64,000 bases of DNA from Lentisphaera profundi (GTDB taxonomy: Bacteria > Verrucomicrobiota > Lentisphaeria > Lentisphaerales > Lentisphaeraceae): positions 1,984,001 to 2,048,000 of the forward strand of contig NZ_CP117812.1 in the NCBI RefSeq assembly GCF_028728065.1. The letters are read 5' to 3'. This document shows positions 24,312 through 30,216 of this stretch, piece by piece (within the stretch, counting starts at the first letter, position 1; each line of letters opens with the position of its first letter). Position numbers and translations under genes: made by a program. The notes beneath the pieces were generated by a model. That model saw only the letters and a list, made by a program, of their open reading frames with translations, was not told the DNA's origin and made no database searches.

Positions 24312-24763
24312 GTCTCTGTTAAAGTTAGTATTGCCTGGTCCAGGACTGGCAGGGTTTTTAGGAACATTTTTGCGCAGCTCGTCTGCCAGACGTAGAATCC
24401 TAATGGAACGGGACTTAAGAACATGCCTTTTCATAATCATGAGAAATTGTGTTATTTCATCTTATTCTAGGGCGAATTCCCTTCAAATAATATTGTAAAG
24501 AAAAGCTCATCATATTACTTTAAAGATCATCAAGATATGGAACTGGAGGTCAATTATCATATATAAATCACTGCGTTTTTTTTTCTCAGATAAGTTTTCA
24601 CGCGGATCATGTTTTACCCAATAACATCATTAGTTCAGTACTCATCAACAAGGTCAGAAAACACATTTCTTCACTAAGTTTAAGTACGGACCCTAAAACA
24701 CAGCAGTTCACATGAGCTCGCTACCAATTATAATTGTTAGGCTAACTTAAAATAATAAATCCA
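24312..24763. other. Intergenic region at the left edge of the accessory island
   Basis: No gene is seen. The left part holds a REP-like element (see the repeat entry). The rest is AT-rich, with a T9 run near 24580 and a small inverted repeat GTTAG-G-CTAAC (24736-24746) just before the HEPN-like gene, which could be an operator. Composition changes visibly here, from the MoxR operon to AT-richer DNA. Confidence 0.5.
24334..24403 (-). repeat. REP-like intergenic element, copy 2
   Basis: Contains CCTGG-T-CCAGG (24334-24344), CGTCT-GCC-AGACG (24380-24392), and the pair TTAGGA/TCCTAA (24358-24363 and 24398-24403) enclosing the second hairpin. CTGGCAG (24346-24352) can also pair with CTGCCAG (24383-24389). 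On the minus strand the order hairpin, ACGAG, variable part, CCTGCC matches the element at 6150-6216. It could also act as a terminator for the VWA operon, but there is no clean T-run on the plus strand. Confidence 0.4.
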
Positions 24764-25561
24764 ATGCATATAAAGCCTCATAACATAAAGACCATGATAA
24801 TTTTCGTAAATGGAGTGTCAATTGACAATTCTTTCACCTTTTTCAATGGCTTCACAATATCTAAATTGAATGATTTACCCGATAAGGCTATCTCAAATGA
24901 GGTTCAGAATATTATTAGAAATAATGATTCTTATGTTTTATATAAATCAGTTGAAAAAGAAAATTACACGGCTGAATTATTTGAACAAGGAGTTTTTACT
25001 TCCGAAATAATCTCTTTAAACCTTAGAGGCACTATTGGTGTAGAAATTTTAGCGGCGTCTGATTATTGTACATGGAGTGTTCCTAACATTTTAAACTATG
25101 GTATAAGACAAAGGTTAGAAGTAACTGATTTGACAAACATAAATGAAAACATAAAGGAGTTTACGAAGAGAACTCCTGAGGAAAAAGTTTGTATTGAGGT
25201 TGCACTTATGTATTTAAACAAATCTAAGATTTGTATAAAAAGGGTGAACGGTAACTATGAACATGCTATATTTTTCAGGGTCGCTTTAGAAAACTGTTTT
25301 AATGCTCCCAAAGAAAAGAAAGAAGCAGTAATTGCCCAGAGGGCTACAGTTCTTTTAAACCAATTTGAATCTAGTAAAGTAAAACAAAAATTTAAACGGA
25401 TTTACGCTCAAACTTCTGTGGCTGTACACTCCGGAAAAGTCCCTAAAGCCCCAAGAAATAATAGTAAAGAAAGAAAAGTCAAAATTGGCGACTACTACAT
25501 GTACGATATACTAGTAATGTCTATTTCAAAAATTATAAATAATGGATTCCCAAATTGGTAA
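24764..25561 (+). CDS. Putative HEPN-like protein
   Basis: 265 residues, visibly richer in A+T than its neighbours. No signal peptide or membrane segment. The C-terminal third contains RIYAQTSVAVHSG (R212 to H222), followed by a helical end, which resembles the R-Y-x-R-x-x-x-x-H-G region of ApeA-like HEPN domains. HEPN proteins are often RNases in defence or toxin systems. The spacing between the Arg and His is longer than the classical R-x4-6-H, so catalytic activity is uncertain. The start is unclear: ATG 24764 and ATG 24794 both lack a good ribosome binding site. It stands alone, followed by a terminator-like hairpin (25781-25797) and repeats. The nature of the gene is inferred. Confidence 0.55.
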   Translation: MHIKPHNIKTMIIFVNGVSIDNSFTFFNGFTISKLNDLPDKAISNEVQNIIRNNDSYVLYKSVEKENYTAELFEQGVFTSEIISLNLRGTIGVEILAASDYCTWSVPNILNYGIRQRLEVTDLTNINENIKEFTKRTPEEKVCIEVALMYLNKSKICIKRVNGNYEHAIFFRVALENCFNAPKEKKEAVIAQRATVLLNQFESSKVKQKFKRIYAQTSVAVHSGKVPKAPRNNSKERKVKIGDYYMYDILVMSISKIINNGFPNW

Positions 25562-25596
25562 ATAAATAATTTGAAAATAACCTAAATATCTATACT

Positions 25597-25672
25597 TTAC
25601 CTACGGACCTGTCGTCTAATTTGAAAAGACACTGTGAATGCAGAGATCTCGGTTTGATTCCGAGTAGGTAAA
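25597..25672 (+). pseudogene. Degenerate tRNA (Gln/Glu-like remnant)
   Basis: The 3' half has a proper T-arm (CTCGG-TTTGATT-CCGAG, 25648-25664) followed by TAGGTAA. The 5' part has TCGTCTAA followed by GACAC (25612-25632), as in bacterial tRNA-Gln and tRNA-Glu D-arms. The arm between D and T is 16 nt instead of about 22 and offers no 5-bp anticodon stem or clear anticodon. TTTACCTA (25596-25603) pairs perfectly with TAGGTAAA (25665-25672), but sits about 8 nt too far from the D-arm for a normal tRNA. The result is a tRNA-like but broken molecule, perhaps left by integration of a mobile element. No 3' CCA is encoded. Confidence 0.4.
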
Positions 25673-25700
25673 GAGTATTAATTCAATAAAAAATAGAGTA

Positions 25701-25761
25701 AAAAATAGAGGACAGGCCTTCTTGGATAATAAAATAAAAAATAGAGGACAGGCCTTCTTGG
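25701..25761 (+). repeat. Two tandem copies of the AGAGGACAGGCCTTCT repeat (35-bp period)
   Basis: AAAAATAGAGGACAGGCC followed by TTCTTGGA occurs at 25701-25726 and again at 25736-25761. This is the start of the repeat family that separates the island genes; all copies in the window point the same way. The copies here end in TTCTTGGA, unlike the TTCTACGAGAG form found further right. Confidence 0.85.
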
Positions 25762-25775
25762 AGAGTTGATTTGAA

Positions 25776-25857
25776 CGCGCCTCAAACCTAGGCTCTTTTT
25801 TCATTTTAAGAGGTTCAAAATAAATGCTAAAATCCACTTTTTCTTTTAGCTGCTAGA
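25776..25857 (+). repeat. Long repeat unit with terminator-like hairpin, copy A1
   Basis: Starts with GCCT-CAAACCT-AGGC followed by CTCTTTTTTC, a hairpin plus T-run that could terminate the HEPN-like gene. It continues through TGCTAAAATCCACTTTTTC to TGCTAGACAG. It matches unit A2 (25968-26052) with scattered substitutions. In A2 the hairpin bases differ but part of the pairing is kept, which suggests that the RNA structure matters. Confidence 0.75.
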
Positions 25858-25872
25858 CAGAAAATAGAGGAC

Positions 25873-25962
25873 CAGAAAATAGAGGACAGGCCTTCTACGA
25901 GAGCTGGTTTAAAATGGCAGAAAATAGAGGACAGGCCTTCTACGAGAGCTGGTTTAAAATGG
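25873..25962 (+). repeat. Perfect tandem duplication of a 45-bp unit
   Basis: 25873-25917 and 25918-25962 are identical, each running from CAGAAAATAGAGGACAGG to GGTTTAAAATGG. A truncated third start (AGAAAATAGAGGAC) lies just upstream at 25859-25872. A perfect tandem indicates a recent duplication and gives a likely site of copy-number variation between strains. Confidence 0.9.
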
Positions 25963-25967
25963 TTTAA

Positions 25968-26110
25968 ATAGCCTCAAACCTTGGCGATTTTTTCGTTTTA
26001 AGAGTGTCAAAGTGAATGCTAAAATCCACTTTTTCGTTTAGTTGCTAGAGAGCTAAGAAAACTAATCAAATTACTAGTCGATTGAGTACTAATGCGCCTA
26101 AAATAAAAAC
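25968..26110 (+). repeat. Long repeat unit, copy A2, with extended right part
   Basis: Begins like A1 (AGCC-TCAAACCTT-GGC plus T-run) and continues through TGAATGCTAAAATCCAC, GTTGCTAGAGAGCTAAG and CTAATCAAATTACTAGTCG to about 26110. The right part from CGTTTAGTTGCTAGA onward recurs at 28570-28645 after the GH18 gene. It ends about 85 nt before the stop of the leftward transposase gene. Confidence 0.8.
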
Positions 26111-26194
26111 GAAGAACTCAAGACGGTTGTAAATCAGTGCTGCCACACAGGCGGATATATTGAAGGTTGTCTACTAAAAGTTGATGAGATGCAT

Positions 26195-27163
26195 TCAGCC
26201 AACGGAGGCTCTCCGTCGTCGAGGCTTGAGAGAATAAATATCATTCCATTCAGCCTCAGTGTAAGGCTCATGAATTCTCTTCCATTTCATCTTGCCTGAG
26301 AACTTAGCCAACTTCTCCCGAACAAACGCTTCCGAACCAATGACCAGGCATTTGGTGAAGAACCTGCATTTGTGAATAAAAAGATCATCCCACTGGAGAG
26401 CCTCCGGAAGCGAACTAGATTCTGTTAGCAGATATTCCTTTACAGTTTTTGAATCGGCATTCTTATAACACCGTAAGCCGAGCATATAAGCCCTCAAAAC
26501 CTCTCTAAAATGCTTTTGCTTATCTCTAGTGACATGAGCTTCAATTCCACGACAAAACACATCAAAGAACTCGTGATCTAATTTTCCAACATCTCCTCCT
26601 GCCAAACGATCTGAATATCCACAGAAATGAAAGTCTTTTGGATCTAAAACAATTCCAGCTCGTACTGGATTCAAAGATATATAAGCCATGACCCGAAGTA
26701 AAGAATCCGATTGAGCTGAAACCTCAATCATTTCCGAATCAAATCGTTGTCCAAACAAGCGCCCCCAAGAGCTGTGCTCTTTGTTGAACCATTGAACGAA
26801 TCTCTGTTCAAAGTTTCCAATAATAAATGAAATATCGTGGATCTTTTCCCTGAAATCATTTCTTTGTATTGAGCTAATAAAATTAATCTCATCATTCTGT
26901 TTATGAAGACGATAACGCTCTAACAATTCTACCTTACTCATTTCAGCAGTAGCTGGAATTTTAATCAATAAATGAAAATGATTATCCATAAAGACATAAT
27001 CAATTACTTGATAACTGAATCTTGCGCATCCCGCAAAAAGTAATTCTTTAAGCTTCAGTTTTTCCTGATCTTTGATTAACATGCGACCACCAGCAACACG
27101 ATTAGTTACTAAATAATAAACTGCTTGATCCGAACAAGATTCCTTAACGCGATTGTGAGCCAT
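26195..27163 (-). CDS. REP-associated tyrosine transposase (RAYT, Y1/TnpA_REP family)
   Basis: 322 residues. The HUH metal motif is H62-F-H64 (DNHFHLLI), and the catalytic tyrosine is Y161 in MAYISLNPVRAGI, both diagnostic of Y1 (IS200/TnpA_REP-type) transposases. AAGGAG precedes the ATG. The protein has a C-terminal extension of about 150 residues, as many RAYTs do. RAYTs are single-copy domesticated relatives of IS200 transposases linked to REP repeats. Here the gene lies inside a cluster of short repeats (25.7-26.1 and 27.2-27.4 kb), so these repeats are candidate substrates, though they lack a classical long palindrome. No terminal inverted repeats are seen, as expected for this family. 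Confidence 0.93.
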   Translation of the reverse strand: MAHNRVKESCSDQAVYYLVTNRVAGGRMLIKDQEKLKLKELLFAGCARFSYQVIDYVFMDNHFHLLIKIPATAEMSKVELLERYRLHKQNDEINFISSIQRNDFREKIHDISFIIGNFEQRFVQWFNKEHSSWGRLFGQRFDSEMIEVSAQSDSLLRVMAYISLNPVRAGIVLDPKDFHFCGYSDRLAGGDVGKLDHEFFDVFCRGIEAHVTRDKQKHFREVLRAYMLGLRCYKNADSKTVKEYLLTESSSLPEALQWDDLFIHKCRFFTKCLVIGSEAFVREKLAKFSGKMKWKRIHEPYTEAEWNDIYSLKPRRRRASVG

Positions 27164-27229
27164 AACTATCTCCTTACCACAGTACAGAGACTATAAAACA
27201 CAATAGAGACAAAAGCAAAAAACATAAAA

Positions 27230-27386
27230 TCCAAAGGACAGACTTTCTGCGAGAGATAAATAAAGGGACCATTAATGGACAAACCTTCTAACCAGGGCTG
27301 ATTTGAAAGAGTCTCTAGCTAGGCTCTTTTTTCGTTTTAAAAGGGTTAAAAAATAAATAAAAATAGAGAACAGGCCTTCTTGGAAC
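27230..27386 (+). repeat. Degenerate repeat cluster between transposase and GH18 gene
   Basis: Holds three versions of the family: AAAGGACAGACTTTCTGCG (about 27234-27252), ATGGACAAACCTTCT with CTGATTTGAAAGAGTC (about 27277-27314), and AAAAATAGAGAACAGGCC (about 27360-27377). The middle one ends in the hairpin AGAGTC-TCTAGCTA-GGCTCT followed by T's (27309-27333). The substitutions suggest older copies than those at 25.9 kb. Confidence 0.75.
27309..27333 (+). terminator. Terminator-like hairpin in repeat
   Basis: AGAGTC (27309-27314) pairs with GGCTCT (27323-27328, one G-U pair) around an 8-nt loop and runs into six T's. No plus-strand gene ends just before it, so it probably insulates the GH18 gene from upstream transcription or is simply part of the repeat. 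Confidence 0.5.
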
Positions 27387-27459
27387 GTTTATTTCGCTCT
27401 CAAGTGCAGTATGCTTTTTCAGTTCATCACACAAAATCTTAAAAGGGGCAAATAAGAAT

Positions 27460-28404
27460 ATGAAACAGCAAATCAGAGTTTTCCTGAGAATGGGGCTTTT
27501 GCTTATCTGTGGCATCTGCAGTGCCAAAGAGAAGTTTAAACACGTGGAATACTACGTTTGGAATAGGCTCGCGGAAAAAGCGATTGATAAGAAGGCTATT
27601 AAAAATGTCAGCATACTCTACTACTTTAAGCTTGTCCCGGATAAGGAAGGACACCTTAAACCGAGTAAGGAATATGTCGCGCAGCTGGCCAAGCTCAAGA
27701 GTGCTAAGGGTATAAAAACCGAACTCTGGCTTGGATTGGGTACCCTTGACAATATCGCGAAAGACCCAGAAAAACAGGATGTGTTTATCAAGGATCTTCA
27801 CTCTTTGTGCAGGACCTACCTCTTCCAAGGTATTGATGTCGACTGGGAAGGTGAGCATATTGACAACGATGACTACACGCGAATTCTCAAACGACTGTCG
27901 AAGGAGTTCAGACCCTCCAGAAAGATAGCGATCTCGGTCGGCACCTACGGGCATTACATCGTCAAAGCGAGGATGACAAAGGAGTATGCGGATTACGTAA
28001 ATATTCAGTGCTACTACAGCACTACCAACAGCTGGTCGGTGAAGCAGATGGGAGATATCCTGCAGTCGTTTCACTCCAAATCTTCCGTGCCGAAATCCAG
28101 GATTCTACTTGGTCTTCCACTCTATGGTGCACTCGATGCCCGCAAGCACGGCAGCGAAGGTGGTACTGCTTATCGCACCATGATTGAGCAGGGGGCTGAT
28201 TCCAGAAAGAATACATGGAAGGAACCGTCTTCAGGAAAGGTCAATCACTACAGCGGTGTTCCTCTGATAAAGGAAAAGACCCGCTACGCCAGAGATAACG
28301 GATATGCAGGTGTTTTTACCTGGGAGATCTCTTTGGATGTTCCCTATGAATCGAAAGATTCCATTCTTAAGGCTATCGACGAGGTGATACAGAAAGGTAG
28401 ATAG
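27460..28404 (+). CDS. Secreted GH18-family (chitinase-like) protein
   Basis: 314 residues. N-terminal signal peptide (VFLRMGLLLICGICSA). The GH18 barrel shows GIDVDWE with D126, D128 and the catalytic acid E130. The first Asp of the usual D-x-x-D-x-D-x-E is Q123 here. Further barrel strands include ILLGLPLYG and GVFTWEISLD. Family members cleave chitin or peptidoglycan-type GlcNAc linkages; the first Asp is not strictly required, so activity is plausible but unproven. The gene is visibly GC-richer than its neighbours, which suggests separate acquisition. Its ribosome binding site (AAGGGG, about 12 nt before the ATG) is loosely placed. A repeat with a terminator-like hairpin follows it. Confidence 0.85.
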   Translation: MKQQIRVFLRMGLLLICGICSAKEKFKHVEYYVWNRLAEKAIDKKAIKNVSILYYFKLVPDKEGHLKPSKEYVAQLAKLKSAKGIKTELWLGLGTLDNIAKDPEKQDVFIKDLHSLCRTYLFQGIDVDWEGEHIDNDDYTRILKRLSKEFRPSRKIAISVGTYGHYIVKARMTKEYADYVNIQCYYSTTNSWSVKQMGDILQSFHSKSSVPKSRILLGLPLYGALDARKHGSEGGTAYRTMIEQGADSRKNTWKEPSSGKVNHYSGVPLIKEKTRYARDNGYAGVFTWEISLDVPYESKDSILKAIDEVIQKGR

Positions 28405-28503
28405 AGCGTGTCTTTCTTCCTGAGAGAAATCATCAGCTATATCTATTTACTGTTCCTGGCGGAGCTTTGGCCTGCGTCCACGGAAAATTGAAAATAAAGG
28501 ATG

Positions 28504-28645
28504 AAAAATAAAGGACAGGCCTTCTGGGAGGGCTGGTTTAAATAAAAGAGTCTCTAACTAGGCTCTTTTTCGTTTAGTTGCTAGATAGCTAAGAAAACTA
28601 ATCAAATTACTAGTCGATTGAGTTAAAAGCGTCTAAAATAAAAAT
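28504..28645 (+). repeat. Island repeat copy after the GH18 gene
   Basis: GAAAAATAAAGGACAGGCC, then CTGGTTTAAATAAAAGAG, the hairpin, CGTTTAGTTGCTAGATAGC and CTAATCAAATTACTAGTCG. Compared with unit A2 it lacks the segment between two TTTTTCGTTT direct repeats, as if deleted by recombination between them. The sequence diverges after about 28645. Confidence 0.85.
28547..28570 (+). terminator. Rho-independent terminator-like hairpin after GH18 gene
   Basis: AGAGTC (28547-28552) pairs with GGCTCT (28561-28566) around TCTAACTA, followed by T's. It lies about 140 nt after the GH18 stop in the right orientation to end its transcript, and it is part of the repeat. Confidence 0.6.
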
Positions 28646-28652
28646 GCATTCC

Positions 28653-28705
28653 TAAGTATGAGCTTTAGTGAGATTTTGCTTAGACTCAAATCTCGGTCAT
28701 TACTA
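28653..28705 (+). repeat. parDE-flanking direct repeat, left copy
   Basis: An imperfect ~54-bp direct repeat shared with 29473-29527. Common blocks are TAAG-ATG-GCT--AGTGA and CTCAAATCTCGGTC-TTA. It lies about 130 nt before parD. Nothing else in the window matches it. Confidence 0.7.
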
Positions 28706-28784
28706 TAAAAATTAAAAAATCACCCCAACACAATGAACTACGTATATAGATTTACCTATTGAACTTTATGAGAATAATTAGTAA

Positions 28785-28801
28785 TTGGCAATTATTGACA
28801 A
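28785..28801. promoter_or_regulatory. Probable parDE operator/promoter
   Basis: TTGGCAATTATTGACAA is a near-perfect inverted repeat (7 of 8 pairs around a central T). It contains TTGACA (28795-28800), a perfect -35 box, with AT-rich DNA at the -10 position. ParD antitoxins usually repress their own operon by binding palindromes over the promoter, so this is the natural operator. The -10 box is weak, so the exact start is not fixed. Confidence 0.5.
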
Positions 28802-28836
28802 TATATTAAAGCAATTAAAAATAATAGGTATTAACT

Positions 28837-29112
28837 ATGTCTACACGAAATATCAGCCTTACTGAACACTACGACCAATTCGTAGCAAGTTCGGTAACCA
28901 CAGGTCGTTACCAAAATGCAAGCGAAGTAGTTCGTGCGGGTTTACGCTTACTAGAAGATAGAGAAAACGAACAACAACTAAAGTTGAAAAATTTACAAAA
29001 TATAACTCAAGCATCCTTTAAGGCTATGGATAAGGGTGAATTTTCTTCTCGTTCATTCGATGATATTGCTGATAGTATTGTATGTCTATCGATCAATGAG
29101 AAACATGGATGA
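28837..29112 (+). CDS. parD: ParD-family antitoxin
   Basis: 91 residues. The N-terminus MSTRNISLTEHYDQFV and the following YQNASEVVRAGLRLLEDRE are the ribbon-helix-helix DNA-binding domain of type II ParD (CC2985-like) antitoxins. The C-terminal half (SFKAMDKGEFSSRSFDDI) is the toxin-binding tail. The stop overlaps the start of the toxin gene by 4 nt (ATGA), so the two are coupled. The operon is probably autoregulated through the inverted repeat at 28785-28801. Confidence 0.95.
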   Translation: MSTRNISLTEHYDQFVASSVTTGRYQNASEVVRAGLRLLEDRENEQQLKLKNLQNITQASFKAMDKGEFSSRSFDDIADSIVCLSINEKHG

Positions 29113-29447
29113 GTTACACACTTGTTCTTTCAAAACAAGCTGAAGTCGATTTACTAGATGTATTACAATATACATTTGACAGTTTTGGCGAACGTCAATA
29201 CTGGATTTACCGTGATTTAATTAAAGAAACCATAGCTCTCATTACTGAAACCCCTTTACATGTAGCTTCTCGTTCACGCCATGAATTGGCTGCAGATGCT
29301 AGAACTTATCATATCAGTAACCCTAAATCCAGGGCTTCTCATTTTTTACTTTACCGTATCAACGAAAATGAACAGCAAATAGAATTAGGCCGTATTCTTC
29401 ATGAAACTGTTGATATTGAAAGACAGTTACCTACTAATTTCGAATAG
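29109..29447 (+). CDS. parE: ParE-family toxin
   Basis: 112 residues. The RelE/ParE fold is indicated by YTLVLSKQAEVDLLDVLQYT, the conserved Arg/His-rich middle (HVASRSRHELAADARTYHI) and the strand RILHETVDIERQLP. ParE toxins usually poison DNA gyrase. The gene directly follows and overlaps the parD-like antitoxin. Both lie between two imperfect direct repeats, which suggests that the pair moves or was acquired as a unit. Confidence 0.94.
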   Translation: MSYTLVLSKQAEVDLLDVLQYTFDSFGERQYWIYRDLIKETIALITETPLHVASRSRHELAADARTYHISNPKSRASHFLLYRINENEQQIELGRILHETVDIERQLPTNFE

Positions 29448-29472
29448 TAGATTTATCTCCTAAAAACAATGT

Positions 29473-29527
29473 TAAGCATGGGCTACAGTGAAAAGTTTCG
29501 CTTCGCTCAAATCTCGGTCGTTAAATT
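29473..29527 (+). repeat. parDE-flanking direct repeat, right copy
   Basis: Matches 28653-28705: TAAGCATGGGCTACAGTGA and CTCAAATCTCGGTCGTTA here against TAAGTATGAGCTTTAGTGA and CTCAAATCTCGGTCATTA there. It starts 26 nt after the parE stop and ends just before the ATG at 29532. It therefore decides against the upstream ATGs at 29469 and 29478 as starts of the next gene. Confidence 0.7.
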
Positions 29528-29531
29528 TAAA

Positions 29532-30128
29532 ATGCCATCAATAAGAACAGATGTATTAGTGGATCGAGATTATCGTGAGTGGCATGGTGGAATTGCTCTT
29601 TACGGCTTTTGGTGTGTTCAAATTGAGGATAGTTCTTGGATTGATCGCTTAAATTGTGTAAAATCCTCGTTCAAGCCATTTCTTCAAGATGGCTATCAGC
29701 GCTTTCCGCATGTCACCATTGCAACTGTTGGCTTGATGAACGATGAGAATTGGCGTGTTGCTAATCGTCAGATAAAATTGTTACGGATGCTGAAGCTAAG
29801 TAAAATCGGTTTGTCTTGGAAGGCTGTCTCTTCTTATATTCACTCTCCAATTGTTCGTGTTTCTTCATCGAAGAACTATTTATCGAAGATTAGAGAGCAA
29901 CTTCATTTGATTTCACTTGGTGATGATTCAAGTGATTTCGACCCGCATATTACCTTGGGGTACTATTCTTCTATTACATCCATAGATAGTACTCTAATGA
30001 CGGGCGAGGAAAGCTGCGTACAAAAATTTGATAGCCTGGAAATCGGAGAAATTAAGTTTTGTACCTATGAAACACATACTATCAAGGGCTCTCTTTCCGT
30101 TCAGTCTAGCATTGATCTGCGTGGATAA
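29532..30128 (+). CDS. 2H phosphoesterase (LigT/2'-5' RNA ligase-like)
   Basis: 198 residues from ATG 29532; a frame opening at 29469 would translate the intergenic repeat. Two H-x-T motifs are present: H60-V-T62 (FPHVTIATVG) and H139-I-T141 (DPHITLGYY). These are the catalytic pair of the 2H superfamily, whose members hydrolyse or form 2',5' or cyclic phosphodiester bonds in RNA or nucleotides. About 80 residues separate the motifs, normal for the family. No obvious ribosome binding site precedes it. Its position beside parDE and close to a HEPN-like gene is suggestive of RNA-related defence or stress, but there is no direct evidence. Confidence 0.75.
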   Translation: MPSIRTDVLVDRDYREWHGGIALYGFWCVQIEDSSWIDRLNCVKSSFKPFLQDGYQRFPHVTIATVGLMNDENWRVANRQIKLLRMLKLSKIGLSWKAVSSYIHSPIVRVSSSKNYLSKIREQLHLISLGDDSSDFDPHITLGYYSSITSIDSTLMTGEESCVQKFDSLEIGEIKFCTYETHTIKGSLSVQSSIDLRG

Positions 30129-30152
30129 AATTTAACAAAGCCATCAAAGAAT

Positions 30153-30193
30153 AGAAAATAGAGGACAGGCCTTCTACGAGAAGCTGATTTAAA
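30153..30193 (+). repeat. Last copy of the island repeat
   Basis: AGAAAATAGAGGACAGGCC, then TTCTACGAGAAGCTGATTT. It matches the 45-bp units at 25.9 kb with one inserted A and one substitution. It lies between the converging 2H and rhomboid genes and marks the right end of the repeat-bearing island. Confidence 0.85.
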
Positions 30194-30216
30194 AGCAAAA
30201 TACATAGCTGCTAAAA

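What the first reader, a model, noticed from the sequence alone, without database searches (positions are those of the whole stretch)
25681..30193. Repeat-punctuated island: one repeat family separates unrelated genes
The core AGAGGACAGGCCTTCT occurs in recognisable form at least eight times, always in the same orientation, between the HEPN-like gene, RAYT, GH18 gene, parDE/2H block and rhomboid gene. Several copies include a hairpin followed by T's. Each boundary thus carries a same-sense repeat and often a terminator, reminiscent of cassette arrays, although no integron-type attC core is seen. This could be an undescribed cassette or RAYT-linked repeat system.
Basis: partly seen in the sequence, partly recalled or inferred. 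Interest (0 to 1): 0.65.

Follow-up and report, generated by a model that had tools for sequence, protein, structure and literature searches.

The report
Mobile RAYT element with stacked ends

Summary
Observation confirmed: five exact and three near-exact copies of AGAGGACAGGCCTTCT, all on the + strand, at 25707-30175 (chance 0.48). The core is the outer tip of the ~275-nt right end (RE) of a mobile RAYT element, not a cassette boundary. The genome (Lentisphaera) holds five full-length copies of this RAYT (82-85% identical), each with the same RE just after its stop codon; two congeners hold two and seven.

At 8 of 13 elements the RE is followed by a stack of RE fragments. They share one outer end, about 5-13 nt beyond a small tip hairpin, but start at variable points (10-123 nt long). 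One L. marina element lies inside a 271-bp direct duplication. Distant RAYTs (25-30% identity) in Verrucomicrobiota MAGs show the same stacking at their left tips (8 of 14, against 0.2% in controls). The best reading is RAYT nicking at a fixed distance from the hairpin, followed by repair that re-copies upstream sequence.

The island fills a junction that is 6 nt long in L. marina. Two attC-like sites, matching attC from the genome's own integron arrays, flank parDE, so the statement "no attC" is wrong.

A known kind (RAYT/TIRYT), with an apparently undescribed end-stacking behaviour.

The parts
24312..30216 (.). Insertion island between the VWA-domain gene (stop 24311) and the rhomboid gene (stop 30217); this gap is 6 nt in L. 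marina (G001) and about 635 nt with a different gene in G002
25918..26194 (-). Complete right end (RE) of the RAYT element, from the RAYT stop codon to the tip
25873..25917 (-). Stacked RE fragment, 45 nt, exact suffix of the RE
25858..25872 (-). Stacked RE fragment, 15 nt
25735..25857 (-). Stacked RE fragment, 123 nt, diverged; tip tail CTATTTTTTA instead of CTATTTTCTG
25699..25734 (-). Stacked RE fragment, 36 nt
25687..25698 (-). Stacked RE fragment, 12 nt; genomic flank begins at 25686
26195..27163 (-). RAYT (Y1/HUH transposase, 322 aa, DNHFH and YISLNP motifs)
27164..27218 (-). Left end (LE) of the RAYT element: 55 nt starting TTGCTTTT and carrying the RBS; no inverted copy of the tip
27219..27395 (-). 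Older, diverged RE fragments directly outside the LE (RE 27263-27364, further tips on either side); terminator-like hairpin 27305-27330
27460..28404 (+). GH18 glycosidase gene, 46.5% G+C, absent from the other five family genomes
28485..28647 (-). Solo truncated RE with stacked tips; terminator-like hairpin 28544-28569
28650..28705 (+). attC-like site 1 (decayed R' box)
   Evidence: E = 0.004
28837..29112 (+). parD antitoxin gene (integron cassette)
29109..29447 (+). parE/relE-like toxin gene (named from operon context with parD; no Pfam hit)
29470..29526 (+). attC-like site 2, R' box GTTAAAT
   Evidence: E = 1.1e-5
29532..30128 (+). 2H/LigT-like gene (weak match) starting 5 nt after attC 2; probable second cassette with R''-like ATTTAAC at 30131-30137
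30146..30195 (-). RE tip fragment of about 50 nt abutting the end of the 2H cassette

Best explanation
The repeats are right ends, complete or 5'-truncated, of a mobile RAYT element (about 55-nt left end, 322-aa Y1/HUH transposase, about 275-nt right end). The element has a small hairpin near its outer tip (AAGG-CCTGT-CCTT). Shown: the RE is part of every RAYT copy examined; RE fragments stack outside the tip with one fixed outer end and variable inner ends; the tail beyond the hairpin differs between loci but is shared by neighbouring units; one element sits inside a 271-bp direct duplication. Inferred: the transposase cuts one strand at a fixed distance (about 7-10 nt) outside the hairpin, probably at C|T as known TnpA-REP enzymes do. 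The free 3' end is then extended or rejoined after the repair machinery has stepped back a variable distance, so each event adds a copy of the sequence just upstream of the cut. Repeated at the tip this builds the stacks; together with element insertion it gives long target duplications; elsewhere it leaves solo truncated ends. The gene-dense island is a tolerant convergent-gene junction where this element, a GH18 gene, a HEPN-like gene and integron cassettes accumulated. The same-sense pattern reflects repeated events at one nick site rather than cassette exchange.
For: RAYT paralogues and RE linkage in 13 of 13 copies. Stacks at 8 of 13 elements, 39 added units parsed, junctions mostly blunt with 0-1 nt shared. 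Scan for repeats of 10 nt or more: most right ends fall at +5 to +13 from the hairpin end, while left starts range from -231 to +3; at G002c all 11 right ends are identical with left starts from -112 to -3. 271-bp, 93%-identical duplication flanking an L. marina element, ending at the LE. Same stacking at left tips of distant RAYTs: 8 of 14 have an adjacent duplication of 7 nt or more, against 0.2% at control positions. Tip hairpin covaries across relatives: 8 cells changed on both sides, 0 of 500 shuffles reach the score. C|T lies at the stack boundary in 13 of 16 loci by my count, background 27%, matching published TnpA-REP cleavage 3' of REPs (PMC8266576).
Against: No cleavage was observed; the nick is inferred from sequence. 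Boundary positions in the Lentisphaera stacks were set by tail patterns that I chose, so the C|T count leans in my favour (the distant loci were placed automatically). Stack units in one locus are not independent. Only one clear long duplication was found among 12 elements with both flanks. Two arrays (G000c, G002a) lack C|T at the boundary. Some junctions carry 1-6 extra nucleotides.
Confidence: 0.55

Rival explanations
1. One-ended single-strand transposition: the RE is still a RAYT element end, but each unit is the 3' end of the RE from another copy, joined precisely to a nicked tip, with its ragged 5' end sealed by host repair.
For: Explains the solo RE fragments with a fixed 3' tip and a variable 5' end at C1:235 kb, C1:2001 kb and G002 C9, and the stacks equally well.
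Against: Tails beyond the hairpin are locus-specific and shared by neighbouring units, which favours copying in cis. It does not by itself explain the 271-bp duplication.
Confidence: 0.22
2. Ordinary replication slippage at hairpin-rich tandem repeats of the RAYT element ends, with no role for the transposase.
For: Units are tandem and in one orientation; some junctions share 5 nt or more.
Against: Slippage would not fix one end of every unit while the other end wanders over 100 nt or more. Most junctions share 0-1 nt. The pattern recurs at tips of distant RAYTs and not at control positions.
Confidence: 0.14
3. A new cassette system in which the repeat is the recombination site moving GH18, parDE and 2H.
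For: Repeats lie between unrelated genes in one orientation; gene content of the junction differs in congeners.
Against: Copies elsewhere are RAYT ends or solo fragments without evident cargo. parDE has its own attC sites. GH18 is single-copy and absent from congeners. No recombinase other than the RAYT is linked.
Confidence: 0.06
4. Assembly artefact of repeat collapse or expansion.
For: Short tandem repeats are prone to misassembly.
Against: Unequal unit lengths, seen in three Lentisphaera genomes and several MAGs from different projects.
Confidence: 0.03

Closest known systems
TIRYT / TIRtron (Di Nocera et al. 2013, PMC3733652)
   Same: Y1 transposase related to RAYT, flanked not by GTAG REPs but by longer ends with a GGGGWSAS-like motif (here RGGACAG); end repeats occur as singles, dimers and groups
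   Different: In Lentisphaera the tip is at the right end only, so there is no terminal inverted repeat. The passages I read there do not describe ordered truncation with a fixed outer end (the word 'truncated' occurs 0 times in the text)
TnpA-Y1 subclass 2.3 (Quentin et al. 2018, PMC6006769)
   Same: About 325 aa, long C-terminal tail, Y---NP motif, several diverged copies per genome, no REP structures recognised by those authors
   Different: NHFH and YISLNP here, against NHYH and YVDLNP; clear element ends are identified here; assignment to the subclass was not tested with its HMM
Classical RAYT/REP (REPtron; Nunvar et al. 2010, PMC2817692)
   Same: HUH/Tyr transposase with a cognate short hairpin repeat in flanking and dispersed copies
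   Different: No GTAG foot; a handful of copies instead of more than 100; RAYT itself multi-copy at different sites, whereas Nunvar et al. found no signs of such mobility
Chromosomal integron / CALIN (attC clusters lacking an integrase)
   Same: parDE, and probably the 2H gene, are bounded by attC-like sites resembling the genome's own array attC
   Different: Only two decayed sites, no integrase at the locus; this is a separate feature from the RE repeats

Membership tests
RAYT / TnpA-Y1 class 2 | HUH motif plus catalytic Tyr in a Y---NP context | tested here: met
   NHFH and YISLNP invariant in 9 copies; Y1_Tnp E = 9e-7; NCBIfam REP_Tyr_transpos E = 7e-11 but 42 bits against a cut-off of 80
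Classical RAYT with REP | GTAG tetranucleotide at the foot of flanking hairpins | tested here: not met
   No GTAG at the tip hairpin in any of 13 copies
TIRYT | Terminal inverted repeats flanking the gene | tested here: not met
   Tip only at the right end in Lentisphaera; left end starts TTGCTTTT
TIRYT | GGGGWSAS-like motif in the ends | tested here: met
   RGGACAG in Lentisphaera (loosely), GGGGACAG in distant relatives
IS200/IS605 insertion sequence | Subterminal hairpins at both ends and multiple mobile copies | tested here: inconclusive
   Multi-copy at different sites; hairpins demonstrated for the right end only
IS200/IS605 insertion sequence | Insertion without target duplication through a single-stranded circle | tested here: inconclusive
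   One element lies in a 271-bp duplication; the others show none within 4 kb that I can attribute to insertion
New cassette system | Repeat flanks varying cargo genes at several loci | tested here: not met
Integron cassette (parDE) | attC sites on both sides in one orientation | tested here: met
   R1 matches at 28650 and 29470, the first with a decayed R' box; array attC and two IntI at C1:1.89 Mb
RAYT nicking at the stack boundary | In vitro cleavage at the inferred site | not testable with these tools
   needs purified protein

The most novel reading that the evidence does not exclude
A group of RAYT-like Y1 transposases generates, as a by-product of nicking at a fixed distance from a tip hairpin, stacks of variable-length copies of the DNA just upstream of the nick. 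This would be a transposase-driven tandem-duplication activity, also able to produce duplications of hundreds of bases in flanking genes, and conserved from Lentisphaera to distant Verrucomicrobiota.
Probability: 0.45. Interest if true: 0.7.

Novelty: new variant of a known kind. Interest (0 to 1): 0.52.

Why it matters
RAYTs are usually described as domesticated and immobile, and how they spread their repeats is poorly understood. Here is a RAYT that moves as an element, with definable ends, and whose tips carry a readable record of where the enzyme appears to cut. The stacks predict the cut site to within a few bases, so cleavage and end-growth can be tested directly. If the nick-and-recopy model is right it adds a way in which a small transposase can create tandem duplications.

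Tried and rejected
A cassette reading was tested by looking for cargo beside other copies: none found. Empty sites for the other RAYT insertions could not be recovered because intergenic DNA of congeners is too diverged. A tRNA hypothesis for 25607-25669: ARAGORN finds nothing and Rfam gives 23.9 bits, below its gathering score of 29. Folding the two window attC sites alone gave no unusual stability, so their attC status rests on the model match, spacing and orientation. A structure model of the RAYT from 9 close homologues was poor (pLDDT 48) and was not used. No PDB chain matches by sequence. Near-exact core searches in 60 relatives gave, outside this genome, only single hits in two genomes.

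Full report
Observation. The 16-mer AGAGGACAGGCCTTCT occurs eight times with up to three mismatches in the window, always on the + strand, between 25707 and 30175, against 0.48 expected. Longer repeats of 45 to 82 nt surround it.

What the repeat is. In its own genome (5.46 Mb, two contigs) the exact core is found only here, but the longer unit has diverged copies elsewhere. The RAYT has four further full-length copies at 82-85% identity, and two congeners carry two and seven copies at 80-84% identity, some of them broken. One congener is Lentisphaera marina IMCC11369, so the window is from Lentisphaera. Aligning the copies in the RAYT sense shows a left end of only about 55 nt, starting TTGCTTTT, and a right end of about 250-280 nt running from the stop codon to a tip with the core; sequence outside is unrelated between copies. 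So the core is the outer tip of a mobile RAYT element. The 12-mer AGGACAGGCCTT occurs 13, 16 and 6 times in the three genomes and never in the reversed control. A covariance model of the RE finds only a few solo REs besides RAYT-linked ones, and those examined are truncated on the RAYT side, most keeping the tip.

Stacked ends. At 8 of 13 elements the first tip is followed by further RE fragments, 39 units in all by my parse, of about 10 to 123 nt. The unit ends nearest the genome flank coincide within each locus; the other ends wander. A repeat scan without the parsing patterns gives the same picture: most right ends fall 5 to 13 nt beyond the hairpin, while left starts range from -231 to +3. 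Most junctions are blunt. The tail between hairpin and boundary differs between loci (ATTTTC, AAAGGGCGT, CCGCCTT) but is the same in neighbouring units, so the units were probably copied locally. In the window the order, in the RAYT sense, is full RE, 45, 15, 123, 36 and 12 nt.

Long duplication. One L. marina element sits between two copies of a 271-bp segment (93% identical) holding the 3' end of a neighbouring gene and its terminator; the left copy ends at the LE and the right copy starts where the stack ends. This has the same geometry as a stack unit, with the element in between.

Generality. A scan of 84,980 species genomes returned, apart from L. marina, RAYT relatives mostly at 24-32% identity, chiefly in Verrucomicrobiota and Kiritimatiellae MAGs. 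Many have a tip hairpin upstream of the gene (GGGG-TCTGT-CCCC, AGTG-CCTGT-CACT and others). In 8 of 14 the tip is directly followed by a copy of its own outer part (7 nt or more), against 0.2% at control positions. The hairpin stem covaries; the tips were collected with a motif that fixed the loop and part of the 3' stem but not the pairing.

Mechanism. Known TnpA-REP enzymes cut C|T next to their hairpin, leaving a 3'-OH and a 5'-phosphotyrosine (PMC8266576). C|T lies at the stack boundary in 13 of 16 loci by my count, against 27% background, with the caveat that Lentisphaera boundaries were set by patterns I chose. I infer a nick at a fixed distance outside the hairpin followed by re-copying from a variable point upstream. 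One-ended transfer from another copy is a close rival and may account for the solo fragments. That the repeats are RAYT element ends is close to certain (about 0.95); the stated confidence of 0.55 is for the nick-and-recopy step.

The island. Between the VWA gene and the rhomboid gene L. marina has 6 nt, the other congener a 635-nt stretch with a GxxExxY-like gene, and the window genome 5.9 kb. GH18 is absent from the other family genomes searched. The repeat at 28650 and 29470 belongs to the attC family of this genome's chromosomal integrons: two arrays on C1, two integron integrases above the TIGR02249 cut-off, and dozens of attC sites. A model built from array attC scores the two window sites at E = 0.004 and 1.1e-5 with nothing else convincing in 64 kb. 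They flank parDE, and the 2H gene starts 5 nt after the second site, as in a cassette. RE fragments abut this cassette block on both sides; whether that is causal is not known.

Membership. The protein is a class 2 TnpA-Y1 by its motifs, resembling subclass 2.3 and TIRYTs by length, copy number and tip motif (PMC6006769, PMC3733652), but it fails the GTAG criterion of classical RAYTs and, in Lentisphaera, the inverted-repeat criterion of TIRYTs. In the literature passages I read I found no description of end stacks with one fixed end; I did not read every paper in full.

Noticed in passing
own genome C1:1885000-1919900 and C1:2778000-2808341 (L221-L224): Two chromosomal integron cassette arrays with many highly similar attC sites; the first has two adjacent integron integrase genes and transposase copies inserted in the array; one cassette is another parDE pair
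   Followed up: partly
L079:10544-11178 (congener G002): A GxxExxY-like gene (named by eye) with flanking CACAGAGG.. / ..CTCTGTGG inverted repeats occupies the same VWA-rhomboid junction: an independent insertion at the same spot
   Followed up: no
window 25607-25669: tRNA-like sequence after the HEPN-like gene, below the Rfam threshold; a decayed tRNA or tRNA mimic beside a HEPN-like gene
   Followed up: partly
window 30152-30200: The short RE fragment begins, in RAYT sense, TTTTGCTTTT like the left end, so it could be an internally deleted mini-element
   Followed up: no
L051:4715-5045: RAYT copy whose N-terminal part (about 74 residues) is fused directly to two RE tips: an internally deleted element
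   Followed up: partly
upstream flanks of elements G000b and G000c: Two other dispersed repeat families: a roughly 90-bp repeat with about 15 copies in each congener, and CAGGTAGGTAGTCCACTCTTTAGAGTGC in many copies
   Followed up: no
G002:C5:294528-295022: Tandem array of 17-nt units, one part of which matches the centre of the window attC query
   Followed up: no
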